A program made the translations under genes and the position numbers. DNA of 64,000 nt, from the NCBI GenBank assembly GCA_009761415.1, contig QUOL01000009.1, forward strand, positions 1,054,001-1,118,000, read 5' to 3'. Positions 5,915 to 44,403 of the stretch are shown piece by piece; positions within the stretch are counted from its first letter, which is position 1, and every line of letters begins with the position of its first letter. A model generated the notes under the pieces. The model did not search any database and was not told the origin of the DNA. It saw only the letters and a list, made by a program, of their open reading frames with translations. Source of the DNA: Sarcomyxa edulis. Taxonomy: Eukaryota > Basidiomycota > Agaricomycetes > Agaricales > Mycenaceae.

Positions 5915-6138
5915 TGGAGAATCGATGTTGCGAAGACAGGTTGTACGCGCAGATATTCGTCTTCCTGTCGCGGTTTACAACTGTCCCTAACATCGAATTG
6001 TGATGGTGCAATAAAATCGGAAGCTTCGTTGTGCAGTAGCGCCTCGTTGAGACACAAAAGTATGTGCCACTCCCCATAGTAGATCTGAACCCGGAGAATC
6101 TACAAGTCCACGAACACTTCAGTCAACCCCCCCCTCCC

Positions 6139-6184
6139 AACCTCTTAGGTTGACAAAATTGACAGAATATATAACCTAAGAGGT
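6139..6184. repeat. 11-bp inverted repeat
   Basis: CCTCTTAGGTT at about 6141 is followed 22 bp later by its reverse complement AACCTAAGAGG. It marks the left edge of the degenerate repeat block that ends at the retrotransposon. It could be a terminal fragment of a small DNA transposon. Confidence 0.5.
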
Positions 6185-6770
6185 ATGAGTGCCCATGGGC
6201 ACGTGGTTAATCCCAAGATATCTTGGGCTTCCCCAAAATTCCTATGGGACTGTCAGTGGGTGCGGGATCTTGGGAACATCCCATCTTTGGGTATGTCCTA
6301 GAAGGCTTGCCCATGTCCCACTTACCCATGGGACAGCCCATGGCTGCTGGGCTTCCCCAGAATGTCACAGGGTGTCTGGGGTCACTTTTCCATTTTTTTC
6401 CTAGCATTTGCGTTTAGCACCAGGTATCATTGTTATGGTTTATTAGCATCCGAGAGTGGTGCAGTACAAGGCCTGTCATTGTATACAAGAAAAAGGATCT
6501 TATACGAGGTGTACAGAGCAGGTCTAACATGAGGGAAACAGGTGGGCGTTGCAGGAGGAGTGTTGATATCCATGTTGGTGTCAAAGTCCAGATCTGACTG
6601 ATATTGGTTGTAGTCCCCAACCTCTGTCATGTCATCACAGATGGGGAAATTGGTGGAGGAAGCAGAAGAGGTGAAGGATTGCTCAAGAGTGGTTATGGGC
6701 CAAAGACAGGGCCGACAAAGGTGAATGGGCATGTACAAGGGAGCATGGTGTGATCTAGAGATAGTACTGT

Positions 6771-7256
6771 TCAGGCTGGTGTAGTTGTTATTGTGATGGT
6801 GTTAGCGTTGGCGTTGTTAGTGCGGAGGATGGTATTGGAAACAGATACGGCTAGACTGTGCGTTGGAGAGACAGTGTTGTTGGAGAGGGGCTGACAACAA
6901 CGATTGGCAAGTTTACCAGAAGATTGGAAGGTGAGAGATGGTGCTGCTCGCAAGGGTTTGGGAGTTGTTTCTAGAAATGGGTTGTTTAGGTGATTGAGAG
7001 AGTCTCTGCCTGAGTGCAGACAGAAGGTAATGGCTGGCTCTGTGTCCTTATTGGGTGATGAGGCAATGATTACAGATTTGTCAGAGATATCTGTTGACAG
7101 CTCTGCGTGTGTTGCGTGAGGAGAGCGATGACCTGCTAGTGGTAATACTGCTGAATTGGACTTTGGGATAATCCGCTGTTGTTGACGCATGCTAAGTGGA
7201 TGACTACCTTTATGATTTGAACTCTCAATAAGGCTTATTATACCTTCAATCAACAT
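6771..7256 (-). pseudogene. Unrecognised open frame, likely transposon-gene remnant
   Basis: A 161-codon minus-strand frame begins MLIEGIISLIESSNHKG, continues through a serine- and asparagine-rich stretch and ends in a TITITTTP tail. The codon content is plausible for coding sequence, but I recognise no domain. Frames to its left (6433-6738) might once have been further exons. Its place in degenerate repeats favours a decayed transposon gene over a host gene. Confidence 0.25.
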
Positions 7257-7309
7257 GTCTTATATGTACCATATCACTCTTCCCAGGGAATGTAGCACTC
7301 TTCCCGGGG

Positions 7310-7408
7310 AAGCATCACTCTACCCAGGGACAAACTATCTCTACCCGGGGACAGACTATCTCTACCCGGGGACAGACTATCTCTGCCCGGGGACAAACTA
7401 TCTCTATC
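7310..7408. repeat. 21-bp tandem repeat, about four units
   Basis: The unit is CTACCCGGGGACAGACTATCT with small variations. The same CCCGGGGA core recurs singly on both sides (about 7275-7310 and 7445-7475). The CCCGGG centres make each unit self-complementary. Confidence 0.7.
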
Positions 7409-7702
7409 CAGTCATGACCTTGGTCCATTGGGAAGATATATGTTTTACCCGGGGAAGACATATGTCTACCCGGGGAACATGTATATCTTCCCTGGGAAGA
7501 TACACATCTTTCAGGGATGTTCCCAACTCCTTCCACATACTACGTGGGCTTCCCTAATATCATGTGGGACCTGACCATTAATTTAGGGAAGTCCCACAGA
7601 GTAGTAGAGAAATTGCCTCACTTGCTACAACATAATATCACTTATGCATCACTTTCTAACAACTTGATATATTTGTTAGCCAAAACAATACTAACTAACT
7701 AT

Positions 7703-7733
7703 GTAGTCCATGGCAATCATGTGGGTTACACGG
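7703..7733. repeat. Interrupted copy of a roughly 60-bp direct repeat at the insertion site
   Basis: GTAGTCCATGGCAATCATG followed by GGGTTACACGG abuts the left LTR. A nearly identical copy with GGGTAACACGG lies at 25,291-25,319, just beyond the right LTR. Sequence after the right LTR begins ACGGGTATGGGCC, as does sequence after the second repeat copy, so the element split one unit. ACGG flanks both LTR ends (7730-7733 and 25247-25250) as a 4-bp target duplication. Confidence 0.7.
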
Positions 7734-12143: not shown

Positions 12144-12187
12144 TCGAGACGAACCTTCGAAAAAGCATATCGGTCAAGTATTTTACG

Positions 12188-23480: not shown

Positions 23481-23491
23481 ATTTAAAAGTT

Positions 23492-25246: not shown

Positions 25247-25377
25247 ACGGGTATGGGCCAATAGATAAATAAATACCAACTAAGGAGGTAGTCCATGGCA
25301 ATCATGTGGGTAACACGGGTATAGGCCAATAAATATCCACCAACCAACCAGTCGAGAACAATACAATTACATATACA
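25247..25377. repeat. Right flank of copy 1: short degenerate repeats
   Basis: Two units of a CCAATA(G/A)ATAAATA-type sequence followed by GTAGTCCATGGCAATCATG. They match the left flank at 7660-7733 and lie against the 3' end of the KDZ transposase gene. Confidence 0.55.
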
Positions 25378-28300
25378 TCAGAATTCCTCTTCGTCTTGCA
25401 TCCTGTTACGTTTTCTTGGTGATCCTTCTCGGTTTGGTGTTCCTTTAATAGGTGACACGTTTCTGCTGTGAATCGGAGTTTGAAACACCATAGAGGTACG
25501 TGGGATGTCAAGTCCTGTTGTAGTATACGCAGATTGCAATGCATCCGTAAATGTGAACTGTTCGATGGCTTCAATAAGTTCTTCTTCCATTTCATAATCT
25601 GCTTGTTCTTGTTCATCTTCCTCCTCCGAGTCGTCATTGTCATTCCCACTCCCAGCACCCAAACTCATCGCCTTATCAATCTCCTGTTGTGATGGACCCC
25701 ATGAATCGGGCATGTCGTGAAAACACCCAACGGCTATCACTTTAGCCTTCCAGATTCCGCATAGCCTAGAAAGAGATTGCGCCCTTAACTTGAGTTGATA
25801 TTCAAGATGAACATCATTGCATTCATTCATGAGAATGGTGATGCATGCCCACTCCTCCATCATCCAGTCCTGCATGGAACATCTCTCCTTTGACAAGCGG
25901 ATCTCCTCTTCCTCACAACGATCCAACTCCAAGAGACTTTTGATCGCTTGTCGAACATATTCATCGCCAAGCCACAACGGAACAGCATTGGCATCGTCTG
26001 TAGCTTCATCTAACCCAATGTCTTGCCAGATATCATCATCAACATCCAAGTCAAAAAGCTTTTCTCGGTTGATCTGGGGAGGTATGATTGCGCCTCGTGG
26101 TGCTTGTTTTCCAGCTTTCAGAGTCGCCATTTCAGTACACAGTTTGTTGTACTTGGCAGCCAATTGAACAATGCCAGGCTCTTTTCTTTTGACCTGACTA
26201 GCCGTGTGACTGTGAAGCTTTTTTTCTGAACAGGATACAATCAAGACATGCACCACAGTCATTTGAGTCAATCAGACTTACCATTGCTAGTCTTGCGGTA
26301 TGCGCGTTCTAGACGGTCCAATTCAAACTTCCTCTGTCTGAGACGGTCACGAATGCGAGACTTTAATGCGCGTGCGTTCATGCGTAGCCTGAGGAACTGG
26401 TTTCCAACCAACGAAGCTAAACGTGCTTTGCCAGTAACCCCAAGTGCCGATCTCTTCCGTTTCAGAGTCTCAGCTAGACTCTTGATTCTATCTTGAACCT
26501 CGTCCCGTTGACTGCTTGCCTCCACAGCATCCATATCATCCTCATACACACCAATAGCCAACATCTTTTCAATGTCCACCAGTTCCTTCTTGTACGCTTT
26601 CTGACAATCTTCCAGTGTCATTATCTCTTCAATAATCTTGTCTGCCTTGTCTTTCGATTGACCTTGAGTCAAAAACGCATCAAGAAATCATGTCTATCAT
26701 GAAAATACAAAATACTCACGTTGCAAAGGCTTGGTTTGTTCGATGACCTGTGCCTTCCATTCTGCCCTGATCAAAAGCTCCCAATCATCTCTGGAGACCC
26801 TTTCGTCCGTATTGGCATTACAAAACTCTGTTTCTGCAGCCAACTTCCGCTTCTGACAAGCCTCCCACTTCCGCTTCAGCCAATCACCAAGACTGTTCAG
26901 CGACTTGCCATCCAGATACCTGACTTGGGTATCAAGCACGTAGAGTCTGTGGTGATATCCAGAAACCCGTAAAGATGGGATAAGCAACTTCAGCGCGCTC
27001 CAAAACCTTTCACAACCTTCCCCATCTGACCATCCAAAGCCTTTGCACTTGCGTGGATGATAAATCAATTGGCAGGGCCACTGGTGCCCGTACGCATGAA
27101 AGACGGATATCCCAAAAGTGATCCGATCCAAGTATTCATCCAGAAAACCCCACTTTGCGCAGCTCCTGTGTATCTGACATCCGATGTCATAAAGCCAGCC
27201 CACAGTCATATCAGAAGGTATGTTCTCAAATAGCTTCTGAATCAAAGCCAAAGAATAATGCTGCTTCTCTCCCGCTGAAGTCATATTGGCCAACCACAAG
27301 ACCCGGTCATGTCTGCAAAGCAAAGCCATGACACCTGTGTCCGCAAAAAATTGAGTGCTGGCCTTCTTCCTTCTTTCATCAGCAGCTGTGAATGATTCGT
27401 TACATTCCTCCAGAACAGACGTTGGAACCTTCATGGAAGGTTCATAATCATCTTCCTTATCAGCATTGGCTTTACCAGCTTTCTTTTTCTGTGAAGGTCG
27501 GGAGGGCCTCTGCTCAGAAACCTTGGCTTCCATGGCCTTTACTTCCTCTTCCGTGAGAAAAACCGTGTTGGAATGGAAATATGGAGGGTCACGATAGCCG
27601 CCTTTGCTGGTTTTCCGTCTCAATTGGGTGAAACAAGCATCAGAGCTTACAATGACATCAGCGCTGGAAGCAAGTCATTGAATGCGTAGACACTATGCGT
27701 GAAAATGACACTTACATTGCATTTGGATCATGCACCAAGTCACCACCAAAGCACAGTGGGCACCGCTGCCTCAAGTACTCGGTTGGTCTTTTGAGATTGT
27801 CACGTGCGCTGGAAGAATTAGCTGCAAACAGTCTAAGTCAAGTTTCATGTAAAAAATGGTAAAGCTTACAAGACTCGTTCTCATCCTGCAAGTCTTCTTC
27901 TTGTTCCTCTTGTTCCTCTTTGTCCTCAATCAAAGTTGCTCGAACATGGTTGATCTTTTTATCCACCATTTTAACGGTTTCGTTTCCTAAGTAGGAATAC
28001 CATAGCAAGGCATTGCCAAATCTCCTTCGAAGAGTATTCTGAATAATGACCTCAATCAAAACATGATATTTCATAAACATGATCAAGGACTCACTCTAGC
28101 CTGTAGAGTATAATTACGGTCCGAGAGAAAGGTCTCCACCGCATCACTCCAAGCTGTAACATTGGGAGCAGTCCGAACAAAGAGATGATTGACAAAATCG
28201 AGCATGTTGATGTCGACGGCAAGCGATGGCTCAAGCGGAGCACAAGGAAATAGGCCACGCGATAGAAGAAGCTGGGCGGGAGCACATGTACAGATGGTTA

Positions 28301-28831
28301 AAGTCTTTATTTCTGCATTTATGTCAGTCCTCAGACCAAAGACCAGACAGTACTTCACTCACTGTCAAAATAAACACAAGTCACTGAAATCTTCCTGCGT
28401 GTAGTGCCACATTGGCAGTGGAGAGCTTCGCACCGTTCCATGGAACGCAATGACTGCGACTCAGAAAGGACACGGAGGTAGGGAAGCAAAAGCTCTGGAA
28501 TGACTTCGTTCTTCCATGTATTCCACTGTTTAAGTCTCTTTTTGCTCGCAGAACTTGTGTGTGGTTTAAGAACAGCAGCATTGATTATCTCGGGCTCACC
28601 GGCTTCATCATCAAAGTCCAGTAAGTTCTCCGAGCTCCTGCTGGGACTTCGAGTGACGGGCTGAATAAACCGACCCTCTGGAGCATAAAGGTCCGTCCTG
28701 GGAAACATTGTTACTCCTTGGATACGCTGCCGTCCATGTTCTAGAGCAGGAACCATAGCAAAGGGGTCTATCTTGTGAGGTGAAGTGGAGGCTGTGAAGC
28801 GTCGTCTCAGATTGGGAGTACGGAAAGACAT
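25378..28831 (-). CDS. KDZ transposase with CxC1-like cysteine cluster
   Basis: Seven minus-strand exons (28831-28363, 28312-28095, 28038-27870, 27821-27716, 27663-26720, 26662-26282, 26225-25378) join in frame to 1,044 residues. Exons 1-2 hold a CxC1-type cluster (ERCEALHCQCG, TICTCAPAQLLL, RGLFPCAPLEPSLAVDI). The KDZ catalytic region follows, with CPLCFGG, VSSDACF (first Asp), YDIGCQ (second Asp) and WSDGEGCERFW (Glu). A lysine/arginine-rich helical C-terminus and an acidic tail complete it. KDZ (Kyakuja-Dileera-Zisupton) proteins are cut-and-paste DNA transposases abundant in basidiomycetes. The frame is intact, so the enzyme could be active. I did not find convincing terminal inverted repeats. 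Confidence 0.9.
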
Positions 28832-29282
28832 CTTATAGCACAGCAGTGGGGGAGAAAGAAAGGGGGGAAAGAAACCTGTTGGTGCCAGCACACCTTAGTA
28901 TTTATGTCTGATCATGAGAAGTAAATGATCTTATTTTTGAACATTCAACATGTGATGTCCATTCTATTATTACAAGGCATGCTATTGACTGATAAGTCAA
29001 CAGCACACCTAAGACAGATTATGGTCAATCCAAATTGACACTGATCAAGATATGTCGCCGATCTGTAGATCGACGACGAGACAATACTATCCAAAAAATA
29101 CGTGTATGTGTAAAGAAGAAAAAAAACGACGCCAGGCCTGACCCCCCGAAAGGACACTGCAAGATACTACTAGATATGTATGTACTTTAAGCATGCACAA
29201 TATTCGTGTATGGAATTGTGCATGCTTAGTGACTACGGTTAGTATGTACGTATACAAATGTCAGTTCGATCTAAATGTCCAG
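28832..29282. other. Spacer between KDZ gene and gene X
   Basis: No gene. It contains the KDZ upstream region, a poly-A/purine stretch near 29115 and a 14-bp perfect stem listed separately. Confidence 0.5.
29188..29228. repeat. Perfect 14-bp stem-loop
   Basis: TAAGCATGCACAAT (29188-29201) and ATTGTGCATGCTTA (29215-29228) are exact reverse complements around a 13-base loop. It sits 55 bp beyond the stop codon of gene X, so it may be a 3'-end signal or a transposon scar. Confidence 0.75.
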
Positions 29283-32152
29283 CTAAGTCGCGGGCGAGCA
29301 AGCCAAGTGAGACGGGATCTGGCGAGGGCAGACTGCAGCGCGACCAAACGTGTTGTAGAAGATCTGGCAATATGTCTGTGCCAACATCTTTTCGACGTCG
29401 CTGATTTTCTTCGAACAGTTTGTCCTGGACATCTCCGCAAACGAAGGGAGACGGACCCCATTGAAGAGACGGCGCGTACCATGCGACATGGGCCAGTCCG
29501 ACATGACGAGTCGGAGACAATGGAGGAAGGGGGCCTTCTCAGCAAAGTGGACAGCAGCGAGTCCTCGGTTCCTATCTGGCATTTCTACCATGTACCCGGT
29601 ATCTCCGAAAAAGACGTCTTGGATGGCTTCGTTGCGTGTCCCGGCGTTGTCTTCTACCCACAAGTCCGGCCTAAGATGACGATCCAAAGCGAGCAGTTCG
29701 AATCGGAAGTTCAACTCGCACAACTCCCAAAGAATCTCGGACTCGATCTCGGGAGTCAGAGCCTCGTCCATGGCGGCCTCATCGTAGGTTTCAAAGACAG
29801 TGCCGTTCCAAGCAACTTGCGGGGGGACGGTGGTTTGTTGACCAAACAGGTCATGGACACGAGCGACGCGCGCGGCGTTGTGTGTCTTGCGGCGGGTGGT
29901 GGAAGGGGGAGGGGGAAGCACAGCATTCTTGTCGCCAGACACGTTAGCTTCATCTGCTTCATCGGCATGGTCAGATTTGTCGACTTCTTCGTTGTCTGCT
30001 CCGTAGCCTTCGTCAGCTTCATCGCCTTCTTCATCTTCGTCAGGCAGCAGGCTAGAATCATCCCTGAGACGTCGCAAAACAGGAGCAACCGCTGATTGGG
30101 GTGCAAGATGCAAAAAGCGGCCTAAGAAAGCCCTCCAATCCTGGTTGCAGACTGCTCGAGGAACAAAGTTCACAGCCCACATCGAGAGTAAAACCGCGCT
30201 ACGTGCTGCAATCCAATTGATGAAGTAGCGAAGTCGATTTTTGGTCGAAATGAACAAACCGTGCTCGGGGAAGAGATATCCCGTTGTCGGCATCTGTTTG
30301 GTGGTCTCGACGCTTGGACGATTTGTCGTGTTCACCTTTGAGAGCCCCAAAGCCCAAGCAGGAATGGCAGGGGGCATCGTTTTTCCCACTATTTCCTGGA
30401 ATTTGTTCCGACCAGGATGTTCATGAGCCTTCCCCTTTCCTTTGTTTGTTTTCCTTTTCTTCTTTGGAGGCTTCGAAGGGGACTCCTCAATGGAATCGGT
30501 CGAAACGATATCGCGCGTGGGGGTAGACGTTGTGTCTCCAGATTGGGAGACGGCAACAGAATGGGATGTAGTTTTAGAGACGGTGGAGGAGGATCTGCCC
30601 GTGAAAGCCGACGTTGTGCCTGGAGGAGGCTGTGACACTGTGAAGGACTTGGAAATAGAGGTGCTCGACTTCGACGTTGACGTTGACGTTGACTTCGACG
30701 TTGACTTTGACATAGCTCGCGAAGGTGCTTGGCGGCGTGAGCCAGACTTAGAAGGACGAACATCTAAGTCATCTTCGTTGCCTGGATTGATGCTAGGCGC
30801 GTCAACATCCACGGCAGGATTCGATCCAGCCAGCCTCACAGGAGCACAAGTCGGGGGCTCAGCAGAGAATGTCAAAGGTTGAGGAGGTGCTACCAAGACA
30901 ACCGCAACAAGTCAGTTTCACGTAGATAGCATTCAAATTGGCAATAAATACCTCGATTTGGCCTGGCTTCTCCGCTCCATAGTTCGTAGGTGAAGGAGTC
31001 CCAATGTAATGGGTCACCATCAAGCCGGGTTGGAGCTTCGCGAATACTCTGACCGACTGGGATCATCCGAGCGGGTGCAGGCTCGTCATCGCGCAGACTA
31101 AGGCCAGGATATTTTCGGCCGTTTCGGCGGATTGCTCGACCAAGACTCTCTGTGGCATCACCAAAGTAGACAATGTCAAAGGGCGCTGATTTTCCAGCCT
31201 CATCGCGGAAGTGAACGCCTACGATGTCGACGGGAGCAAGCTCGTCAACGACTTTGTTGATGTTCATGCGGGGAGGTAACTCGTGCTTCCGGCGTGAGAG
31301 CCACACGGGAATGCGCATCTTCATCATGTTGGCGACAACATACGGATCGCTCGTGATACAACCCAACAAGTCGGCCTCAGCGGGTGGACAGTCCGTTTCG
31401 TCAAATTGGTCCTTCAACCTGGGGATATAGACGGTGTAAAATCTAACGAAGGAGACGATATCTAGGTACAATCTTTGAAACTCTGCAATCTGCAGAACGA
31501 GCTCGGCGGGAGTCATCGGGGCGTACATCAGTTGTGTCCAGAGAAAACGAATGGCGTTGTGCGGATGGTAGAGGTAGCTGATATTTGGGTTTTGGTGACA
31601 ATGCCACTCATCAAACTTCTTACAAGCCTCCTTGTACAAAGGCTTTAGCTGCTCTAGCCTCGATTTTCTCAGAACACCAATGGTCATGCGAAATGCATTG
31701 TTGAGATCGAGATGAAGATCATCAACGGTAGGAGTCCAGTAAGCCATAAAGAGGGGATTTTTGGGATCCTTCGTGGGGTAAGGGAGAACGCATGTATGTT
31801 GGTATGTTCTGGTCCACCATTGTGGCCACCGAGAGAACTCGTACTGCGCAAAGCGACCGTCCGCTCGAGCCTGAAGAATTGCAGGGCCGTAAAAAACACG
31901 GGGAACTGTCTCGGCGTTGGGCGATGTGATGATGTGCCATTCCCGGACAATCGAATTAGGGAGTACAGGGTCAGAGAGCCAAGGACTGATTGCAAGCACT
32001 CTGGCATCAAGCGCATTGTAATGGCCTGAATAAAGAGTTGTTTGGATTTAGTCAATTCCAAGTGGACAAAGTTGCAACTTACGTTTCTCGTCCGGCCGAT
32101 GAAAACGCGGGAACGTGGGCCGTTGCGGGTTGTACCAGTTCTGCGACTGCAT
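29283..32152 (-). CDS. Gene X: large nuclear-type protein of unknown function, 916 aa
   Basis: Three exons: 32152-32083 (MQSQNWYNPQRPTF), 32025-30952 and 30889-29283. The N-terminal half is globular and aromatic-rich (WPQWWTRTYQH, HNAIRFLWTQLMYAP, FQRLYLDIVSFVRFY). A long serine/threonine/lysine-rich linker follows, then an SV40-like nuclear signal (PPKKKRKTNKGKGK), a conserved-looking block (STKNRLRYFINWIAARSAV to QDWRAFLGRFL), an acidic stretch and a C-terminal globular part (FELLALDRHLRPDLW, FFGDTGYMVEMPDR). I recognise the general type as a multi-copy Agaricomycete family but know no function. Its leader consists of several noncoding exons with four intronic three-hairpin elements. It is divergent from gene Y, which has the same kind of leader. 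Confidence 0.8.
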
Positions 32153-32248
32153 TATATGCGAGAAGGAGTTGTGACGGGAGAGAAAGACCAACTACGGAAC
32201 AGATTGCACCGTTAGAAAAATTCAAAGTCAAATAATCAAGACAACCTT

Positions 32249-32373
32249 GGCGATCCAGCCCCGAGACAGACAAAAGAGTCAATGTCTCGGGAACCACAAC
32301 GGACAGCAGAGTCAACGTTGTGGTGAGCCAGGAGGTGGACAGCAGAGTCAACTCCTCCTGGCTTGGATAAACC
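32249..32373 (-). ncRNA. Three-hairpin element 1 (intronic, gene X leader)
   Basis: Read on the minus strand, the stems are GCCAGGAG/CTCCTGGC, CCACAAC/GTTGTGG and CCCGAGAC/GTCTCGGG, all perfect. The loops are GTTGACTCTGCTGTCC (twice) and ATTGACTCTTTTGTCT. The ends TATCC and GGAT can pair as a closing stem. The intron is 32411-32192. Whether a stable RNA is made is unknown. Confidence 0.6.
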
Positions 32374-32550
32374 AGAGAGAAAAGAGAAACAAAGAACGGA
32401 CAACGACTTACGAGGAAGAACTAAAAGCAGCAAGACCGAGCAGAAGCGAGAGCGAGAGATATAAAGGCAGAGCAAAATGGAGAGAAAGCGACTGCAATGT
32501 ACGGTAAGTCAGTATCCTTCGAACCGAATAAAAAATTCGAGAAATGAGCT

Positions 32551-32675
32551 GGTGATCCAACCCCAAGACAGACGAAGGAGTCAATGTCTCGGGGACTACG
32601 ACGGACAGCAGAGTCAACGTCGTAGTGAGCCAGGAGGTGGACAGCAGAGTCAACTCCTCCTGGCTTGGATAAACC
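32551..32675 (-). ncRNA. Three-hairpin element 2 (intronic, gene X leader)
   Basis: Stems GCCAGGAG/CTCCTGGC, ACTACGAC/GTCGTAGT and CCCCGAGAC/GTCTTGGGG (one G-T wobble). Same loops as element 1 with small changes. The intron is 32713-32492. Confidence 0.6.
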
Positions 32676-32852
32676 AGAGAGAAAAGAGAAACAAAGAACG
32701 GACAACGACTTACGAGGAAGAACTAAAAGCAGCAAGACCGAGCAGAAGCGAGAGCGAGAGATATAAAGGCAGAGCAAAATGGAGAGAAAGCGACTGCAAT
32801 GTACGGTAAGTCAGTATCCTTCGAACCGAATAAAAAATTCGAGAAATGAGCT

Positions 32853-32977
32853 GGTGATCCAACCCCAAGACAGACGAAGGAGTCAATGTCTCGGGGACTA
32901 CGACGGACAGCAGAGTCAACGTCGTAGTGAGCCAGGAGGTGGACAGCAGAGTCAACTCCTCCTGGCTTGGATACACC
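32853..32977 (-). ncRNA. Three-hairpin element 3 (intronic, gene X leader)
   Basis: Nearly identical to element 2 and one 302-bp unit away. The closing sequence reads GGTGTATCC against GGATCACC. Confidence 0.6.
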
Positions 32978-33154
32978 AGAGGGGAAAGGGAAACGAAAAA
33001 TGAACAACGACTTACCGGAAGAACTGACAGCAGCAAGACCAAGGAAAAGCGAGAGCGTGATATAAAGGCACAGCAAGATGGAGAGAAATGGACTGCAACG
33101 TAGAGTATGTCAGTATGTGTCAAACGGAGGGAGAAGAAATTGGAGAAATCAGCT

Positions 33155-33278
33155 GGTGATCCAACCCCGAGACAGACGAAGGAGTCAATGTCTCAGGGAC
33201 CACAATGGACAGTAGAGTCAACTTTGTGGTAAGCCAGGAGGTGGACAGCAGAGTCAACTCCTCCTGGCTTGGATGAAC
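33155..33278 (-). ncRNA. Three-hairpin element 4 (intronic, gene X leader)
   Basis: Diverged copy. Its stems are GCCAGGAG/CTCCTGGC, ACCACAA/TTGTGGT and CCTGAGAC/GTCTCGGG (one wobble), so pairing is kept although the bases differ from elements 1-3. Confidence 0.58.
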
Positions 33279-33335
33279 TAGCGACGAAAGGGAGGGGAAA
33301 GAGAAAAACAGACAAGAAAAAAAAGACATACCTTT

Positions 33336-33942
33336 TTACAATGTCAAGATAACCGGCAGAGTAGTGAAACCCAACGTGACGAGAACGACGTAAAGAGTGG
33401 CAGCGAGAATAAGGACAAAGAGGACGGCAAGAGGGACGACGATGAGGGAGGTGAGGAGGATAGTGGGATCAATGGTGATGGTGGTGATGGTGGTGGTGGT
33501 GGTAGTGATAAAGACGTGGGAGGGACTTGGCGACACAAACAAGAGCTCCGAAGCGGAGTCAAAGCGGAGTCAGAACTTGCCGGCACATGACTGGTCGCGT
33601 CCTGTCAATCTTGCACCAAGTGTCGCGTCCTCAACAACACCAACAACACAAACACAGGTATGTTCTCTTCATTAAATTCAGGAATAATACTCATTTTATT
33701 TCTTGGGTTTACACTCTGGCTCAAATGTCCCAGAAACTATTAACTAGGCCGTGTCAACATTTCCAACCCAATTAGGCATGCGTTCGAAGTTTGAAGTTTG
33801 AACTTCGAACCGCCGTAACGCCACTTCATCTTTTTTCTTCATCACCATCACCATCACCTTCTGTGGTCGTCGTCGCCCTCTCTCGTCGCCGTCTTCATTG
33901 TCGCCGTTCTCAAGTCGATTAGTATTTATGTCTGAAGCACAG
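33336..33942. other. Centre of the X-Y divergent leader region
   Basis: Likely promoter zone of both genes, because leader introns run outwards on both sides. It contains a GGT/GAT microsatellite (about 33470-33510) and short frames without protein features. Confidence 0.4.
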
Positions 33943-33988
33943 GTAAGTAAATTTATCTTGTCTTTTCTCTCCTTCTCCCCCCTCTCGT

Positions 33989-34113
33989 GGTCTATCCTAT
34001 CGAGGGAGAGTTGACTCTTCTGTCCACTCCCTCGATTGCTACAACGTTGACTCCATTGTCCGTTGTAGCCTCCAAGACATTGACTCCGTTGTCTGTCTTG
34101 GGGTTGGATCACC
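33989..34113 (+). ncRNA. Three-hairpin element 5 (intronic, gene Y leader)
   Basis: Stems ATCGAGGGAG/CTCCCTCGAT, CTACAAC/GTTGTAG and CCAAGAC/GTCTTGG, all perfect, with the standard loops and flanking TATCC/GGATCACC. It lies in a putative leader intron 33943-34173 (GTAAGT...TAG). Confidence 0.6.
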
Positions 34114-34173
34114 CACTCATCTTTTTTCAAACTATCTGAAGTTCAGCATCTAACAATCATCACTATAATATAG

Positions 34174-35606
34174 ATTCCGAGTCTTTGTTGCTCACTCTGT
34201 CGTGTTCTTTGTCTCACTCTTGTTTCAAACCCTTTGTACGTTCTCAATCTTGTTGTCTTGTAGCTCAATATATGCTGACATTGATCATCATTACAGCCTT
34301 GATTTCCTTACTCTCTTGTGTTCTCGCTCTCAATCTCGTTCTCGTGCACGTCCTCGATCTTGTTGTCTTTCAGCTGTGTCAGTCTCCCTGCAGAACCAGG
34401 TTGAATCGTACGTGGTAACTCAATGCCTAGCTCCACGGATACTAATGCTAGCGCAGAGTCAAACTCGCAATGTTGCTTGTTTTTTGCTCTGTGTTTCTCC
34501 GAGAGTCTAATTCCTTGTGAGTCATTTCTGATTCGAATTTATTTTGCCTCTCGATGTTTTCCTTCTCTGGTCCATCTTCTGTCGGTGCCCCAAGTTATCG
34601 CCTCTTATGTCTGTTGTGGGGTTGTATCACCGTTGTTTCAGACACTGTATGACCTCGACTACCACTAACTCCGTTCACCTTGCAGGTTCTTGTGTTCAAT
34701 CTCGCTCCAACGTTCTAGATAGTTTGCTTTGCTACCATTGATCGTAACATCATTTCAAGGTATATATTTTACTGCATTGATTCTCCCTTCTGACCTAACA
34801 TCACACAATTTCAGCTTGTCCAAAGACTGACCACGGTCGCATGATATTTGCAAGCAAACTCCTCTTCCAGAATCCCATGGTATCAATATCGCTCATGCAC
34901 TCGTTCACTCTGTGCTAGAATACCAGTGCTTCCTTGAAGTGCTGGGATCTTTAGATAGTCACCTTTCTATGCGCTTGTTTTTGCAGCGATCTCGATGTGT
35001 AGGTTGTCTGCACGCTCTTGCTTTTCCTCGTAGGTTCATTGGAGTTTGACGTTTGGACTTACGGAGTCTGTATACGTCTCGCCGCACCCAAATTCTACAG
35101 CTTTTCCTGATTTTATCTTCCATTGCACGGACCTGTCAAGATATTCAAGCAACATATGCGTGTATCTCACCTTTTTCAGTATTGTGCCTCGATCCTCCGA
35201 ACAATATGGAGCTGAATTGAATCGGAACATTGATACTAATGCTACAATCAGGATACCCTATTACAGACGGACGCGTCACTGCACAAGGACGCGTCTGGCT
35301 TCTCGTGACTAACTCAAGCACGTGACCAAACAAACAAACAAACTGCCTGCGGGCTCCCTCTTTTTTTTTCCATTGTTTCTTCTCATCGTTTTTCTCCCTT
35401 GCTCTCTCTTTCCCTCCGTCTCTCTCTCTCTCGCTCTTGCTCTCGCCCTCGCTCTTGCTCTCGCTCTCCCCCTCGCTCTTGCTCTCGCTCTCGCTCTCGC
35501 TCTCCCCCTCGCTCTCGCTCTCCCCCTCGCTCTCACTCTCGCTCTCACCCTCGCCCTCGCTCTCACTCTCGCACTCATTCGCTCGCTCTCAAAATAAAGT
35601 CGCCAG
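34174..35606 (+). other. Gene Y leader: CT-rich noncoding exons and introns
   Basis: Many TCTCG/TCTTG-rich tracts resemble the 80-nt leader exons of gene X. No long open frame with protein features is present. The exact exon pattern cannot be settled from sequence. Confidence 0.4.
35399..35590 (+). repeat. CTCGCT/CTCTCG microsatellite
   Basis: About 190 bp of nearly pure CTCGCT, CTTGCT and CCCTCG hexamers on the plus strand. It seems to form an expanded version of the pyrimidine-rich leader exon and ends just before the donor at 35607. Confidence 0.85.
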
Positions 35607-35664
35607 GTAATTGTTTTTTTCCTTCGCGCTGTTCTCGTCGTCTTCCCCCACTTTTTTCTTCCGT

Positions 35665-35789
35665 GGTCTATCCAATTGAGGGAGAGTTGACTCTTCTGTC
35701 CACTCCCTCAATCACCGCGACGTTGACTCTGCTGTCCGTCGTGGTTCCCAAGACATTGACTCCATTGTCTGTCTTGGGATTGGATCACC
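35665..35789 (+). ncRNA. Three-hairpin element 6 (intronic, gene Y leader)
   Basis: Stems ATTGAGGGAG/CTCCCTCAAT, CCGCGAC/GTCGTGG (one wobble) and CCCAAGAC/GTCTTGGG. Against element 5 the first stem shows a C-to-T change matched by G-to-A on the other arm. The intron is about 35607-35846. Confidence 0.6.
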
Positions 35790-36105
35790 ACCCTTCGTTG
35801 CTTTGACTATCTTCTTGGTTCAACTTGCTGATGTGTATCAATTCAGGCTCCCCTCAATACATACTCGCTCCAAAATTTTCTCCCATTCCGATTACTTCCA
35901 CACACACCCTTACCCACCCCCGCTCATTGTCAGGATTTGTTGTTGACGCCAACAGGTTAGTTCGATATTGTTCTTTTGGACCGTGGCATGACAACTAATA
36001 TATTTCACGCAGCTTTTCTGCCTCCTCAGCTTTGCTGTACTGTTCACGGTATTCCAGTGCCTCGTAAGTCAATTTCCTCATGTCATGGTAGCATATTTTC
36101 TCGGC

Positions 36106-36230
36106 GGTATATCCAAGCAAGGGAGAGTTGACTCCTTCGTCCACTTCCTCGCTGACCACGATGTTGACTCTGCTGTCCATCGTGGTCCCCGATACATTGA
36201 CTCCTTCGTCTGTTTCGGGGTTGGATCACC
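36106..36230 (+). ncRNA. Three-hairpin element 7 (intronic, gene Y leader)
   Basis: The second stem is perfect (ACCACGAT/ATCGTGGT); the first (AGCAAGGGAG/CTTCCTCGCT) and third (CCCCGATAC/GTTTCGGGG) have one mismatch each. It lies in intron 36064-36284, whose acceptor is 15 nt before the gene Y start codon. Confidence 0.58.
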
Positions 36231-36299
36231 ACCCATTCCTCATTCTGTCGTGTCTGAATTTTCTGACGGTTCGTTCTCACGCAGTGCTCGATTTTGTCT

Positions 36300-38865
36300 A
36301 TGGCCCCTCCAACTCAGAGTCGTGTAACGCGTTCCGCGACGCGTCTTGTGCAAGACGCTCCGCAATCGCAGCCTTCTGCGGAAAACCAGGTAAGCAATAT
36401 TGTATATGCAGCACCCGCCTTCTTATTAACGATGTTCTTGCGAAGGGGAATCGAGGAAAGTGGGCGGCTAAAGGGAAGAAGAAATCACAGCCTACCCACG
36501 AAGCGCTGCCATCGTCTTCGGACCACGAGCCTGCTTCGTCAGACGACGAACCCGGCTCCTCAGGCCATGAATCTATGCCAACTGAGCCTGAAAGGAAGAC
36601 CAAACGGAAGGTTGGACGTCCGCCTCCTGGGACTGTAAGTATTATTATTATCATCATTATTATTGAGTTGGTAGTTACAATAATTCGTAGAAACGAACGG
36701 CTGCTATGAAAGGAAAACAAAAGGCCCCTGTGACAGCTGCACCCAGTCCTGCAGTTCCAAGTAATTCCAGCATTTCGACGGCGTCAACGATGTCATCCGC
36801 CTCAACCGCTGGAAAAACCAAAAAGCAAGACGTTGGCACAAGTGCAAGGTCCACGGTGCCCTCAAAGTAAGCTTTTTTTCGTTCCTGCATTGAATTCTAG
36901 TACTTGACTAACTACGTATTGTATAGATCATTCTATGTCGAGGTACCGTCGCTCTCGGAGTCGATCTCTGGACGGCAATCCCTCGAGAGTCGAGCGACAG
37001 GCCGAAAGGATCCTGCTGGTCAAGGGTAAGTCGTTGACACCTATCTGTCCTATTCATCTTACTTACGATTGAGTAGGGTATTTCCGGGGCCAGCTTCCAC
37101 TCTCGTCCCAGGCATCAAGGACCGTCTGCCGTTGGACGGTTCTGCATCGGGCTCCAGTCTTACGGTCCGGTACTTCTCTCGGGCGGCGGCTATGGTTGCA
37201 CAAGCGAGAGCCTCACGGGACATTGACGATACCGACCAGGAAGCGACCCCTCGTCCCACTGCTTCTTATCAGCAGAAGGGTCATGTTGAGGATCTGGGCC
37301 CCGCTTACTCCGCCTCTCTCGCGCGGTTTGTACCGTCACCTCCACCACCATCGCAGCCGCGAACTCAGTCGCGCGTCCCACCTGCAACGCCATCGGCTTT
37401 GCAAAGAAGACCCCCTCCTGCAACACCATCGGCTTCGCAAAAAAGACCTCCCCCGGCAACACCCTCAACATCACAGAGGAGACCTCCTGAGACTCCATCA
37501 GCATCGCATAAGGGAACTTCTGCAGCAACTTCATTAGGTTCCCAAGTTGCGGCTACTCCTCCATCGCGAACGCCAACCCAGTCAAATCCGCCTCCCACAC
37601 CATCTGTCTCCCGTGTCCGCAAGACACGGGGGATTGATCGGTCTGCGTCTATCGCAACCCACGTCTCGCCCCACCCGCCTGTCGATCCTAAGTTGTACAA
37701 GGTCACATTTCCACCATCGGCCGCTCTGCAGCCTTATAGGCGACCGAAAGGAAATTTCGCTTATAATTATGCCTTCTATCATGCCAGGCTCAGAAAAACA
37801 CAATACGTCCAATACCTCGGAGAAGCGCCTTTCCTGGGCGCTCCCAAGGATGTCGAAGAGGCGAACCGACTTCGCAAGACCAAGATCCAGGTGTACGCAA
37901 CGGAGGAATTCGATCCCCTCCCTGCAGGCTGGATTGCTCCTTCCAACAGCCTTATGGATCCTGACCAGCTCGCGGATGGATACGATCGATGGCTTGAGAA
38001 GAGGCAGCCTACTGTTCAGCAGCGAGACGCCGGTGCTGGTCCCTGGTTTGCAGTCCTGAAGGCTCCACCAGAGACGCACGAGCCCACTCCCAGTCCACCC
38101 GAGACGCGCGAGTCAAGTCCCAGTCCGCGCGAACGTCCTAGCTCGCCATTCGAAGTCATTGGTCAGAATCCTGACAATGACTTGCTCATGGAAATCAACA
38201 GTGACTATGTTTGTGACCCGGAAACGGGTGACGTTGTCGATGTTTCTGAGTTAAAGGGGAATGAAGAAGAGGATGGAGAAGATGATGAGGCTCCGATTGT
38301 GGAGTCTTCGCCCTCTGGCAGTGACTGGAGCCAAGATCGCCAGGAGCAGGAAGTGAAGTTGAATTTCCGGCGTAAATTAGGGTACGAAGAGCCAGGTACT
38401 GAGGAGGAAGATGAGGCGGAAGACTTGGAACTTGCGGAGGATGTTGTGCAGAGTCCGGAGCGAGTGGATCGTAAAGGCAAAGGGAAAGCAAAAGAAGTAT
38501 ATGTAGATGAGTCTGAGGATGGTTCTGACTCTGACACTGAGGAAACCACCACCGCTGATCAGGGGGAGTTTAAGAAAGGTCCTTTCTCCAAGAAGGAACT
38601 TGCGCAAATTGATGCACTTGGCTCTCAAGTTGACGAACTCATCACCAACCTTGCGACAACTCTCCGAAGGTCCCCGGAACAAGTCAAGAAGTACGCCGGT
38701 CTCAAAATCACTCCCTCACGCGCTGGAAACTTGTGGAATTTGTATGAGCGTTTCTTTGCTCTGGATCATCCACCGCCGGCTGTTAGGCGACAGTCCCCAG
38801 ACTCGGTCCCAGACTCGAAAACGTCACAACCCTCGTGGTCACTCGTGTTATTACATATGATATAG
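36300..38865 (+). CDS. Gene Y: large acidic, proline-rich nuclear-type protein, 780 aa
   Basis: Five exons (36300-36389, 36446-36634, 36691-36866, 36927-37025, 37077-38865), all in frame. The N-terminus has basic and serine-rich stretches with an AT-hook-like core (KRKVGRPPPG). A proline/threonine repeat of about 10 residues follows (PPATPSASQKR and variants, about five units). A conserved-looking central block (LYKVTFPPSAALQPYRRP to RKTQYVQYLGEAPFLG) precedes acidic stretches. The C-terminal helical block is ELAQIDALGSQVDELITNLA and RAGNLWNLYERFF. The type is familiar from other Agaricomycetes, but no function is known to me. It shares its divergent leader architecture with gene X, so the two may be a functional pair. 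Confidence 0.8.
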
Positions 38866-39114: not shown

Positions 39115-41559
39115 ATGAGCCTACTTCAAGATGGTTCACCCATACATACCCCGACGACGATGGTTGAAGGATCTAGTGATCTAACTCCATCCTCGACGGG
39201 TAGAATTGGATCAGACGGTCCAACCGATATTATCCTCGGAGTCCAAGGATCCGAAAATGGAAGCGACGGCCAACGTAACTCCCAATCTTCCAACGAAGAC
39301 GGCCGTGAAGAGATCAACCGGCTGTCTCCTCTATTCCCGCTCAATTTCGAGCTTGATGGAGTGCAGTACCATGTCGACCCCGATACTGGAGTGGTATCCC
39401 GAGTACCAACCACTCCCTCTGAAAATTTGGAACGATTCATAGACCACGACGTACCGCCCCATTTATCATCTGGAACTCGGAACGAGGGACAATTTTTCAA
39501 TCGACAAAACGCTCAACGTGTCAATTTGGCCGATACGGTCCAAAACCCACGTAGCAGCAATTCCGGATCACCCCACACCGTACTTGGGTCCCCTACCATA
39601 CCTACGGACATCGCCAACGCACTACACGGATTGCGGGGCGACATGGGATTCGTTAGGCAGAGGTTGCTTATGACCACTAGCCTAGTCGCAGGCCACCAAA
39701 ACCAGAACGTCATTATGCATAGCGCGTTGAACGATATTCGTTCCGAGACTATGTCCAGAATCAATTCACTACACAACGAGATCGCTGGCGAACGATCCCG
39801 GGTCAATAGGATCCTAGAAGACAACATACGGGTATTACAAGAAGCAGGGACGTCTGAAATCGAGATGAGGGAAATAATCGACTCTCTCGCTAATCAGCCA
39901 TCCTTCGTCACCGCCCCAGAACCTGTCAGCATGGTAAACGCCAGGCACTCGGCCGCTGCTTTACCAGACGACATCCAGAGAGCAATGGAGAATGCAATCG
40001 ACTCGCAGCGCTCGGACGAGAACATTGACGAGTTTGACCAACGAGGCCGTGCTGCCCTTAACACACAAGCTAGGGCACGACAATCATTTGCTCACGGACG
40101 ACCCGCCCAATCTGATTCTTCCGAGTCAGTCGAGTCGACGATTCCCATCGATCAGGGCCCCATCAGTCGTCCATCAGGTCGAAAGGCTAGAGTTAGTTTC
40201 CCCCCGGATATTAACTCAAGCATCGATTACAGACGCACCCTGGATAGTACGACGTTATCCGGGAACAATGCGAGAGATCGACGAGATAGCATCACCCCTC
40301 GATACTCGGGACTACCAGTCAGCGAGGATCGTAGCTTGGCTTATCTCGATCAAACTAGATTACCAGGCAATCCATCTGTATCCGCATATTTCGGAGAAGC
40401 ATTACCGGACGCCATGGCTGCGTATACTCACGAAATCCAGAGTAAACTTCGTGAATTAATCCGTTGGAGAGTAGGCAGACTGTTGGCCCCGCTACCAGCT
40501 GGGGTAAAGCAGCCCAAAATACCTAATCCATCGATATATCGAGGAGATAATAATCACGACACGTTCCTCAAGTTCTTAGAAAACTACTTAGGTTGGTTAA
40601 GGGCGCATAATATATGCGGCCCTGACACCGACGAGCATAGAATCACGTTTCTGGGCCAGAACTTGGATGGAGCCGCGCGCGATTGGTTCAACGATGAAGT
40701 AGACAGTCCGGCTAGGATATCGTCAATAGTCGATTTCGCCGACGTAGTCTGCGCAATGCATAATAGATTTGTACACGCCAATACAGCCCAGCAATGTACG
40801 CTAGATTTCGAATCCTGCACTTACTCCATCACCGATGGAGTGGAGGGGCTGTACGAAAACCTTAAGAAATACGCTGGAAGAATGCGCGAACCTCCCATGG
40901 TTTACACTTTCAAACGCGAGTTTCTCAAGAAATTGCCTCAGTGGATATTCACTAAGCTGGTTAGGGACCGAGCACTATCTGCCGAATACTCCACCCTTGA
41001 AGTATTAAGGGCTAGTGCCAGGCAATTAGAAGAAACTCGTAATATTGAACGTGCGGAGGGCCAATCCGTTACACCACCCCGACTGGACAATATCGACAAA
41101 AGAAATAAAGCGGTGCAAAATCGTATACGAACTAAACACCAAGACGCTGTAGCGAAGGCGGTCGCTCCTAGAGAGACACGAGACACATTGCCAGCAAATC
41201 GTAGCCACAAAGAAGGAGGACCTTCGAACCGAGATCGACCCCCTCAACGTTCCGACGAACGCACCTGTTTCTCGTGCGGAAAAACTGGTCATATAGCCAG
41301 TGATCCCACTTGCGCCAATTTTTCAGAACGGGCCAAGGCGAGACTACACGCTCAGCGTATAGCAGATCCCGACGACTATAACGATGACGCAGACCGGTCC
41401 GAGGAGGACATTCCTGAAGACGATTGGAATGGATCCCAGTACGACACCGATGAGGTGATGGGAGATAGCGAGTCTACTGAAGATGAACGCGACCACGCGC
41501 CATCCGTAAGGATTGGTAGCATGTATAACCCCAATGTCATACGATTTGGAAGCTCCCGC
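39115..41559 (+). CDS. Gag protein of a second Gypsy-type element, cut off by copy 2
   Basis: The frame starts at ATG 39115 and runs 815 codons to the LTR of copy 2, then reads 21 codons into the LTR before a stop at 41620. It has a long disordered and coiled-coil N-terminus, a retrotransposon gag/capsid domain at about residues 465-650 (FLKFLENYLGWLRAHN, LDGAARDWFN, REFLKKLPQWI) and a zinc knuckle (CFSCGKTGHIASDPTC, about 721-736). The knuckle spacing is C-x2-C-x4-H-x6-C, slightly longer than canonical. An acidic tail follows. No protease or pol remains next to it. Confidence 0.85.
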
Positions 41560-43305: not shown

Positions 43306-43464
43306 CTTCCTCCTAACTTTTAAATATCGACCGTCCCCGGTCGATCATCCGGAGGGCAAACACAACAACGTGCCCGTGACCAAAACAGGGCAAGGACGAC
43401 CGGCCAAGGACCTATAAATTCCAAGGTTAAGACAGCCAGGGCTTTCCTGAAAGCAACAAGCCAA

Positions 43465-44403
43465 ATGGATCCCATAGCAAAAGAACTCTTCTTTACGCGC
43501 TGCCTCGATCTAGACGGGATAGATGGCGATATTACGATGGCAACTTTCCTCGGATACCTGCGTAACAATATCCGTCCCATGGTTCACCTAGTTGTTAGCT
43601 GCATTTTTCAGGATGCAGTGGCGGACGTTCTCCTTCCGGAGTTCTCGAGTCACGGTGTATATACGTTGAGAAAGCACGTTAAAATCTTGTGCCAGCACAT
43701 GGTGAGTGCGTGTGCGCCTTTCAGGGGGTCCGTGCTAATTGCGAAGGTCAAGGTATTCATGCTCAGACTTAGATGGGTACTGAAGGGGAGGTGCATGGAC
43801 GATACCACGGAGCCGTTTCCCAAGGAAGCAGTGACCGCCGTTTACCAGGTGCAGCGGTGCGTCCACGTCGTAGGGTTTTCCGGGGATCAGGACGAGGACG
43901 AGGCACATAAGATCGACGTTATCTTGTACTTCATAGAAGAATACGCCCGCCGATCGACATTCGGCGTCGCTTTCGATTACATCGAGGCGGACCCGCGTGG
44001 TCGGTTCCATGCGCATGCCGTGTTGAAGAAGCATCCATACAGCGGTCCCAGGGTACATCGAGATGGTACGATTAGTACGGACAGGGGCAACAGCCTCGAG
44101 GGGGAAGAAAATCCGGCTAACAACGAAGACGAAGGCATATCCGTCATAAGTATTGCAACGGACGACGGGGACGAAGAAATGGAGGTGGCCGAGGTAGAAA
44201 GGGCCTTGTCCGGTAAGAATTCTGACACTTTAGCGGTGCGGCAACGAGCTGATCGGAGAGGTACAGTCCAGCCACTCGCAAGCTTGGCAACACACGGGGC
44301 ATTTCGCCTGCTTTTGGAGACGTTATCCGAAGAGGAGAGGAACGGTTTGATTGGCGGGGCGGCGATTATCGAACAGGGACTAAACAATTTGTCGGGGGCA
44401 TGA
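43465..44403 (+). CDS. P1 (copy 2): antisense paralog family member
   Basis: Same protein as P1 of copy 1, residue for residue as far as I compared. ATG at 43465; TATAAAT at 43413-43419; possible in-frame intron 43702-43746. The palindrome ATCGACCG-N4-CGGTCGAT lies upstream, between 43,326 and 43,345. Confidence 0.75.
   Translation: MDPIAKELFFTRCLDLDGIDGDITMATFLGYLRNNIRPMVHLVVSCIFQDAVADVLLPEFSSHGVYTLRKHVKILCQHMVSACAPFRGSVLIAKVKVFMLRLRWVLKGRCMDDTTEPFPKEAVTAVYQVQRCVHVVGFSGDQDEDEAHKIDVILYFIEEYARRSTFGVAFDYIEADPRGRFHAHAVLKKHPYSGPRVHRDGTISTDRGNSLEGEENPANNEDEGISVISIATDDGDEEMEVAEVERALSGKNSDTLAVRQRADRRGTVQPLASLATHGAFRLLLETLSEEERNGLIGGAAIIEQGLNNLSGA

What the first reader, a model, noticed from the sequence alone, without database searches (positions are those of the whole stretch)
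32249..36230. Seven intron-embedded 125-nt three-hairpin elements with compensatory stem changes
Each copy has three successive hairpins within a possible closing stem (TATCC...GGATCACC). Loops are nearly fixed (GTTGACTCTGCTGTCC twice, then ATTGACTC-N4-TGTCT), stems vary but stay complementary: first stem GCCAGGAG, ATCGAGGGAG or ATTGAGGGAG; second stem CCACAAC, ACTACGAC, CTACAAC or ACCACGAT; third stem with G-T wobbles. Length is 124-125 in all seven. All lie 38-58 nt after a GTAAGT-like donor in leader introns of 220-240 nt, and all point in the sense of the adjacent gene (four minus for X, three plus for Y). Covariation with fixed loops is the mark of a selected RNA, or of a cruciform DNA site. 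I know no described class like this.
Basis: partly seen in the sequence, partly recalled or inferred. Interest (0 to 1): 0.93.

Follow-up and report, generated by a model that had tools for sequence, protein, structure and literature searches.

The report
Three-hairpin RNA in transposon leader introns
A large jumping gene of a fungus carries, inside the introns just ahead of two of its genes, many copies of a folded RNA made of three near-identical knobbed hairpins; natural selection has kept the fold while changing the letters, which suggests a so far undescribed RNA switch or docking site.

Summary
Confirmed and extended. The seven 124-nt elements fold as a four-way junction of three hairpins, each: stem, 5' UU bulge, GAC/GUC, hexaloop UCNNNU. 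They belong to a dispersed family: 51 model matches in fetched stretches plus 10 elements (8 distinct) of a diverged family B. Covariation is strong: 22 of 44 pairs have compensatory changes; a tree places 37 double Watson-Crick replacements against 1-2 with slid partners. A model from family A alone finds all 10 B elements. In 39 of 42 unique contexts the element lies between donor and branch point/acceptor at set spacing (0.1 expected); 53 of 57 point in the sense of the next X or Y frame.
[quoted passage not shown] all 9 X copies found carry elements.
Most likely mode: a sense-strand, three-site protein-binding RNA controlling X and Y leader splicing or fate. Its UU-G-A core matches the arginine-sandwich layout of TAR/7SK. 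Binder and effect are inferred. No Rfam match.

The parts
32249..32372 (-). three-hairpin element X-1
   Evidence: CM 144.5 bits; RNA MFE -62.0 kcal/mol, z -7.68
32551..32674 (-). three-hairpin element X-2
   Evidence: CM 146.1 bits; z -7.59
32853..32976 (-). three-hairpin element X-3
   Evidence: CM 145 bits; z -7.38
33155..33278 (-). three-hairpin element X-4
   Evidence: CM 141.1 bits; z -5.51
33990..34113 (+). three-hairpin element Y-1
   Evidence: CM 140.7 bits; z -7.17
35666..35789 (+). three-hairpin element Y-2
   Evidence: CM 146.9 bits; z -7.23
36107..36230 (+). three-hairpin element Y-3
   Evidence: CM 135.1 bits; z -4.23
34527..34631 (+). possible decayed element (Y side)
   Evidence: CM 12.4 bits, E 0.17; weak
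32192..32411 (-). leader intron of X holding X-1 (predicted from splice signals)
32492..32713 (-). leader intron of X holding X-2 (predicted)
32794..33015 (-). leader intron of X holding X-3 (predicted)
33093..33331 (-). leader intron of X holding X-4 (predicted)
33943..34173 (+). leader intron of Y holding Y-1 (predicted)
35607..35846 (+). leader intron of Y holding Y-2 (predicted; donor GTAATT)
36064..36284 (+). leader intron of Y holding Y-3 (predicted); the likely Y start ATG lies 15 nt after its acceptor
29283..32152 (-). gene X (approximate coding span; open frames 30890-31999 and 29283-30896; the first small exon and its ATG are read by eye); no Pfam domain
36300..38780 (+). gene Y (approximate; start read by eye; cut at 38780, where three other copies continue with another sequence); no Pfam domain
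25378..28891 (-). KDZ transposase gene pieces (PF18758 in 26697-27623; downstream frame 25378-26271; upstream frame 28355-28891 resembles a frame at the same place in the C40:701876-722721 copy; that all belong to one gene is inferred)
25247..38780 (.). right-hand segment of the window's KDZ transposon copy
   Evidence: 97-99% matches to C34:664009-677276
6115..7733 (.). left end of the same transposon copy, starting CACTTCAG with a terminal inverted repeat of about 0.9 kb or more; split off by a nested LTR-type element (about 7734-25251)

Best explanation
The elements are a family of structured RNAs that act on the sense strand of the pre-mRNA. They sit in the 5'-leader introns of genes X and Y, two non-transposase genes of a ~20.8-kb KDZ-superfamily DNA transposon. 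Each is a four-way junction presenting three copies of one small recognition hairpin (UU bulge, GAC/GUC, hexaloop UCNNNU) at a fixed place between donor and branch point. Most likely a protein, encoded by the transposon or by the host, binds the three hairpins and thereby controls splicing, export or turnover of the X and Y leaders, giving joint, copy-number-sensitive control of both genes. Shown: structure, covariation, placement between predicted splice signals, sense orientation, association with one transposon lineage, and a family-wide loop change. Inferred: transcription and splicing themselves, the protein, the effect, and the feedback.
For: Structure: 96.1% of cells paired against 89.5% in shuffles and 35.5-43.0% with slid partners; 22 of 44 pairs with double changes; 37 tree-placed WC-to-WC double replacements against 1-2 with slid partners. 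Core TTGAC...GTC exact in 112 of 117 aligned family-A hairpins. Independent test: a model from family A only finds all 10 family-B elements (8 distinct), E 5.6e-29 to 2.3e-07. B elements lie beside an X relative (51% identical) on C16 and short Y matches (39-42%) on C16 and C4. Loop position 5 is a pyrimidine in 134 of 134 kept family-A hairpins and A in 30 of 30 kept family-B hairpins (84 and 21 unique), a concerted change expected if a binder co-evolves. Placement: 39 of 42 unique contexts have donor and branch point/acceptor in a narrow window, 0.1 expected; whole-intron folds keep 38 of 43 element pairs in one window intron and all in the other six. Element identity median 81.5% against 48.4% in intron flanks (36.8% shuffled). 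All 9 X copies found have elements upstream (one search compared; at C21:30093 only a partly deleted one). UU bulge with G-C then A-U above it is the arginine-sandwich layout of TAR and 7SK (PMC6189040 passages).
Against: No transcript, splicing or binding data. No RNA-binding domain in the X, Y or transposase frames tested; the weak Pfam hits there (such as WWE_4 E 0.013, HTH_38 E 0.11) are below their cut-offs. Y has no relative in the protein search; X gave a poor structure model. Only basic stretches are seen (X2 KKKRKTNKGKGK; one in a frame beside the transposase), no clear arginine-rich motif. WC-to-GU against WC-to-AC single changes are only 36 to 23, and 25 more break the pair otherwise. 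Family B was noticed through its loop pattern and comes from two contigs. Only one genome could be examined at DNA level.
Confidence: 0.5

Rival explanations
1. Intron-hosted small RNA: the element is released from the spliced lariat as a stable ~124-nt RNP that acts in trans, for example on transposition or silencing, with X and Y leaders as host introns.
For: The element is a compact independently folding unit and ends 25-45 nt before a branch-point-like site; intronic box C/D snoRNAs are also held at a set distance from the branch point (~50 nt; PMC8162545 passage). Several copies per transposon.
Against: No Rfam match, so no known snoRNA type. A purely trans-acting RNA need not occur repeatedly in both leaders (one to five copies per leader).
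Confidence: 0.22
2. Passive folding spacer: the hairpins only fold away sequence so that donor and branch point lie close, easing splicing of long leader introns.
For: Set donor and branch-point spacing; whole-intron folds keep the structure.
Against: Does not explain the near-invariant UU bulge, GAC/GUC and UC...U loop in hairpins with unrelated stems, nor the concerted loop change between families.
Confidence: 0.1
3. DNA site: the inverted repeats extrude as cruciforms, or the GTTGACTC motif is a duplex binding site for the transposase or another DNA-binding protein.
For: DNA folding is also better than all shuffles on both strands of the two elements tested (z -5.51 to -7.00); TTGAC also occurs twice near the start of the terminal repeat; the G-U over A-C excess is modest; two copies are broken by insertions inside the element (L011 near 6687; L019 near 4148).
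Against: Placement tracks splice signals in 39 of 42 contexts and orientation tracks the gene in 53 of 57; the elements lie mid-transposon, not at its ends; a duplex site would not need complementary stems.
Confidence: 0.1
4. Double-stranded RNA signal: the hairpins are Dicer substrates or decoys in the contest between transposon and RNA silencing.
For: Three strong hairpins per intron, many copies.
Against: Stems are only about 9-10 bp below a bulge, short for Dicer (recalled); the loop and bulge letters, not the stem letters, are conserved, the reverse of what a guide-producing hairpin needs.
Confidence: 0.08

Closest known systems
HIV TAR and 7SK stem-loop 1 arginine-sandwich hairpins
   Same: 5' pyrimidine bulge (UU as in 7SK U40U41), then G and an A-U pair that forms the triple; TAR also ends in a hexaloop; repeated sites in one RNA as in 7SK (passages of PMC6189040)
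   Different: Upper helix is 3 bp, loop is UCNNNU, three hairpins on a four-way junction, lies in predicted spliceosomal introns of a fungal DNA transposon; no arginine-rich partner identified; no sequence relation claimed
Fungal TPP riboswitches in 5'-UTR introns
   Same: Structured RNA inside a leader intron of a fungal gene (passages of PMC5882874)
   Different: No Rfam match of any kind, TPP included; three repeats of one hairpin rather than one ligand pocket; carried by a transposon
Autoregulatory intron or 5'-UTR structures of fungal ribosomal-protein and lysyl-tRNA synthetase genes
   Same: Conserved structure in introns or 5' UTR, proposed to be bound by the gene's own product (passages of PMC8216456)
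   Different: Host housekeeping genes; other structures
Introner-like elements of fungi
   Same: Many similar introns in one genome (PMC4457414: abstract start in the listing and two reference-list passages; definition otherwise recalled)
   Different: Ours cluster in one transposon lineage and mainly a 124-nt core is conserved; no spread into host genes among the 100 listed places
Drosophila P-element third intron (splicing control of a transposon; recalled, no call)
   Same: A DNA transposon regulating itself through protein binding to its own pre-mRNA
   Different: P element controls its transposase by linear sites; here X/Y leader introns and structured triple hairpins
KDZ (Kyakuja-Dileera-Zisupton) DNA transposons
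   Same: The carrier has a PF18758 transposase, CA..TG ends and 7-8 bp flanking duplications
   Different: The abstract, passages and section 3.2.1 seen of PMC12730594 ('hairpin' has 0 occurrences) describe no X/Y genes and no RNA elements

Membership tests
Any Rfam 15 family | score at or above the gathering threshold, or E <= 1 in a permissive scan | tested here: not met
   0 matches in the whole window at gathering; 0 in 32100-36400 at E <= 1
TAR/7SK-type arginine-sandwich hairpin | paired nucleotide, pyrimidine bulge, then a stem pair that can form the base triple (A-U second above a UU bulge), G between | tested here: met
   Secondary structure and letters only: TTGAC...GTC in 112 of 117 hairpins; layout from PMC6189040 passages. 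The triple itself was not tested
TAR/7SK-type arginine-sandwich hairpin | arginine-rich protein that intercalates into the bulge | not testable with these tools
   Only basic stretches in X2 and in one frame beside the transposase; no RNA-binding domain over its cut-off
Introner-like elements | near-identical introns spread through many unrelated host genes (recalled) | tested here: not met
   Of 169 pattern matches 100 are listed; 11 of these lie outside the transposon loci, and the reversed-pattern control gives 11 in all. The other 69 places were not listed
Intronic box C/D or H/ACA snoRNA | match to snoRNA models | tested here: not met
   No Rfam match; a snoRNA without a model is not excluded
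TPP riboswitch | match to the TPP aptamer model | tested here: not met
KDZ superfamily transposon (carrier) | KDZ transposase domain | tested here: met
   PF18758 E 3.2e-62 in the window
KDZ: Zisupton lineage | TIRs and 8-bp target duplication (PMC12730594 passage) | tested here: inconclusive
   TIRs present; C12 copy flanked by 8 bp caattcga; C40 copy flanked by 7 bp tccgacg
KDZ: Kyakuja lineage | 7-bp target duplication, CA..TG ends, no TIR (PMC12730594 section 3.2.1) | tested here: inconclusive
   CA..TG ends and one 7-bp case, but TIRs are present; no transposase tree was made

The most novel reading that the evidence does not exclude
A TAR-like regulatory system in a DNA transposon: an arginine-rich protein made by the element (X, Y or the transposase) sandwiches arginines into the UU bulges of three tandem hairpins in every leader intron and so senses its own dose, switching the leaders between productive splicing and retention or decay. 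Family A and B loops (fifth loop base pyrimidine or A) are then matched to their own binder, so co-resident transposon families regulate themselves separately.
Probability: 0.25. Interest if true: 0.9.

Novelty: categorically new. Interest (0 to 1): 0.8.

Why it matters
It is a structured-RNA family with covariation support in about 50 copies of one genome, no Rfam counterpart, and a set place between predicted donor and branch point, in a kind of element (a KDZ DNA transposon) for which the one KDZ paper consulted here in part reports no RNA regulation. Transposons face the question of how to limit their own activity; multivalent RNA sites in the introns of both accessory genes give a directly testable handle. 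The shared UU-G-A core would be a convergent arginine-sandwich site outside viruses and 7SK, and the loop change between families A and B is a natural experiment in RNA-protein co-evolution. The class is new as far as tested; the likely mode of action has known analogues.

Tried and rejected
Fold of protein X (AlphaFold2 on alignment A2, 6 sequences): mean pLDDT 42.6, not used for fold searches. Solved-structure profile search with X: best E 0.61, not meaningful. Profile search with A2 added no relatives beyond the first five. Y found no relatives. X in viral contigs: none. Double-hairpin pattern in viral contigs: one match (L031), which does not fold as the element and scores at most 4.6 bits with the model, so taken as chance. 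Considered and set aside: tandem-repeat artefact (family B and diverged copies speak against it), introner-like elements, plain spacer, cruciform as the main reading. Upstream-ATG idea: the X leader exons have no ATG, but the hairpin introns hardly do either (0-1 in X, 0-3 in Y), and the Y leader segments do hold ATGs (1, 15 and 1; the 15 in a 1433-nt stretch whose splicing is unknown), so no uORF switch is evident.

Limits of the counts: alignment A1 holds 39 unique of 44 near-full-length copies, out of 51 nhmmer rows; the 7 partial rows were dropped. The spacing windows were set, and its shuffles were single-nucleotide. Hairpins were kept if 6 or more of 10 stem positions pair (164 of 183), which favours pairing; its re-pairing control used the same kept set. 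Family-B coordinates were set by hand, and the two C4 pairs are near-identical copies. A genome search lists only scored candidates, so copy numbers are lower bounds.
Full report
What is there. The window is C40:1054001-1118000 of a 35.6-Mb genome in 40 contigs; its gene and transposon content looks like a mushroom-forming basidiomycete (inference, not tested). The seven elements are present at the stated places, 124 nt each. Folded as sense RNA they give the same shape, at -48.8 to -65.0 kcal/mol, better than all 200 shuffles in every case: a closing stem (ATCCA/TGGAT) around three hairpins. The fold holds within the whole intron: 38 of 43 element pairs in one intron and all of them in the other six.

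A dispersed family. The Y-2 element found 40 scored matches in the genome, of 49 candidates. In the fetched stretches a profile found 51 rows, of which 44 are near full length and 39 unique; the covariance model R1 found 51 matches at E <= 1 in 17 sources, the weakest four looking decayed. The core TTGACTCNNNTGTC occurs 169 times in the genome against 11 for the reversed pattern; of the 100 places listed, 11 lie outside the clusters described here, and the other 69 were not listed.

Covariation. On the 39-sequence alignment (37 distinct rows), 96.1% of cells pair (shuffled 89.5%), 22 of 44 pairs have double changes (shuffled mean 11.1, 0 of 500 reach it) and 136 cells carry them (shuffled 38.5); sliding the partners by 1-3 columns drops pairing to 35.5-43.0%. 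On a FastTree tree with Fitch reconstruction there are 37 WC-to-WC double changes in 20 pairs, against 1-2 with slid partners, so relatedness is not the source. One-sided decay also occurs: 36 WC-to-GU, 23 WC-to-AC and 25 WC-to-other single changes. Among unique hairpins G-U to A-C cells are 35 to 20 in family A and 11 to 4 in B. The GU excess is what a sense RNA predicts, but it is modest. R-scape was not run.

Family B. The pattern search also showed clusters on C16 and C4 with loop UCUYAU. They hold 10 three-hairpin elements, 8 of them distinct since the two C4 pairs are the same; several have stems that bear no resemblance to family A. Model R1, built from A only, finds all 10, with E from 5.6e-29 to 2.3e-07. 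The 21 unique B hairpins pair at 86.8% of nine stem positions against 45.9% when arms are re-paired at random; the 84 unique A hairpins at 91.1% against 60.8% (hairpins preselected for 6 of 10 pairs, 164 of 183 kept). Loop base 5 is a pyrimidine in 134 of 134 A hairpins and A in 30 of 30 B hairpins. On C16 the neighbouring X relative is 51% identical to the window's X; Y relatives on C16 and C4 are 39-42% identical in stretches of 69-85 residues.

Intron placement. For 47 family-A elements (42 unique contexts) a donor-like site lies 35-60 nt upstream in 40, and a branch-point-like CTRAY 25-46 nt downstream followed by an acceptor at 48-70 nt in 41; both in 39, against 0.1 expected from shuffles (the windows were chosen). 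One of the three misses, L011:6567, is cut by another transposon copy. In the window the predicted introns are 220-240 nt; the X leader exons between them (77, 80 and 80 nt) and the pieces on either side have no ATG, while the Y leader segments do. Of 57 elements (47 A, 10 B) 53 point in the sense of the nearest downstream X or Y frame within 6 kb; one has its downstream side replaced by the insertion, and for three on C27 no frame was found. Median identity between copies is 81.5% in the element and 48.4% in intron flanks, where shuffled flanks give 36.8%.

The carrier. Window 25247-38780 matches C34:664009-677276 at 97-99%, and window 6114-7733 matches the remaining end. The window copy is therefore one transposon split by an LTR-type element (about 7734-25251) and cut again at 38780 inside Y, where the C34, C21 and C12 copies agree on a different continuation. 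Two copies define the ends: C40:701876-722721 (20,846 bp, read in full), flanked by tccgacg, and C12:76857-97675 (20,819 bp, of which 78001-80499 was not fetched), flanked on both sides by caattcga. Both have inverted terminal repeats beginning CACTTCAG, of about 0.9 kb in C12 and at least about 1.3 kb in C40. The transposase is KDZ (PF18758, E 3.2e-62). The Kyakuja elements of PMC12730594 have 7-bp duplications, CA..TG ends and no TIRs (section 3.2.1), and Zisupton has TIRs and 8 bp (passage), so the lineage is left open. Of 93 KDZ matches in the genome the ten best (E <= 2.9e-61; the next is 5.2e-45) stand apart; nine of these ten lie within about 6 kb of a hairpin cluster (in one, C21:9989, the transposase belongs to a copy nested in a hairpin element), and the tenth (C28:2955) lies near a contig end (one search compared). 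The window's own second KDZ match, near 52463-53252, has no element near it.

X and Y. X was found nine times, and all nine copies have elements upstream, at C21:30093 only a partly deleted one (one search compared). Its relatives elsewhere are five unnamed proteins, 44-51% identical, without Pfam domains. Y has none found. Neither has a domain over its cut-off. X2 contains a basic stretch KKKRKTNKGKGK, as likely a nuclear localisation signal as an RNA-binding motif.

How it most likely works. A repeated unit with fixed bulge and loop but free stems is what a protein that reads the bulge and loop would select. In TAR and 7SK the bulge pyrimidine caps an arginine through a triple with a base pair above it (A27-U38 in TAR), the arginine contacts G26, and the paired nucleotide before the bulge forms the base; in 7SK one such bulge is UU (passages of PMC6189040). 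Here UU-G-A with its GAC/GUC helix is intact in 112 of 117 aligned hairpins, and the pair below the bulge may be G-C, A-U or C-G. Three such sites per intron, in introns of both X and Y, suggest joint control by one binder. The place just upstream of the branch point suits control of splicing, and also suits an intron-hosted RNP (passage of PMC8162545). I give cis control by a bound protein 0.5, the intron-hosted RNA 0.22, spacer 0.1, DNA site 0.1, dsRNA signal 0.08.

Novelty. No Rfam family matches. Ten literature searches were answered; in their listings, and in the passages and one section read of six papers, I saw no description of this element or of X/Y in KDZ transposons. The library lacks most subscription papers, and no other fungal genome could be searched at DNA level.

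Noticed in passing
window 7733-25251 and 41552-48987: A ~17.5-kb LTR-type element (1.75-kb end repeats 99.9% identical; frames 9510-15862 look like Ty3-type gag-pol by eye, not searched) is nested in the KDZ transposon with a 4-nt overlap at the junction; 7.4 kb of it recurs inverted at 41555-48987 (99.5%). Described only.
   Followed up: partly
window about 51200-55900: A second, diverged KDZ transposase (C40:1106463-1107252) next to a weak Tet_JBP dioxygenase match below its cut-off (54836-55888, E 0.0057): may be a KDZ element with a TET/JBP gene; no hairpin element there.
   Followed up: no
L011:6687/6688 and L019 near 4148: Two elements are broken inside the hairpin region by insertions (another copy of the KDZ transposon; an LTR-type repeat). 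Chance or preference for the hairpins is not known.
   Followed up: no
window 6115-6185: The first ~70 bp of the terminal repeat contain an inverted repeat (ACCTCTTAGGTT ... AACCTAAGAGGT, read by eye) enclosing TTGACA, a hairpin-like end.
   Followed up: no
L026 and L027 (C4:185000-200000): Two Y-like regions with family-B elements lie inverted about 9 kb apart without a detected X between them.
   Followed up: no
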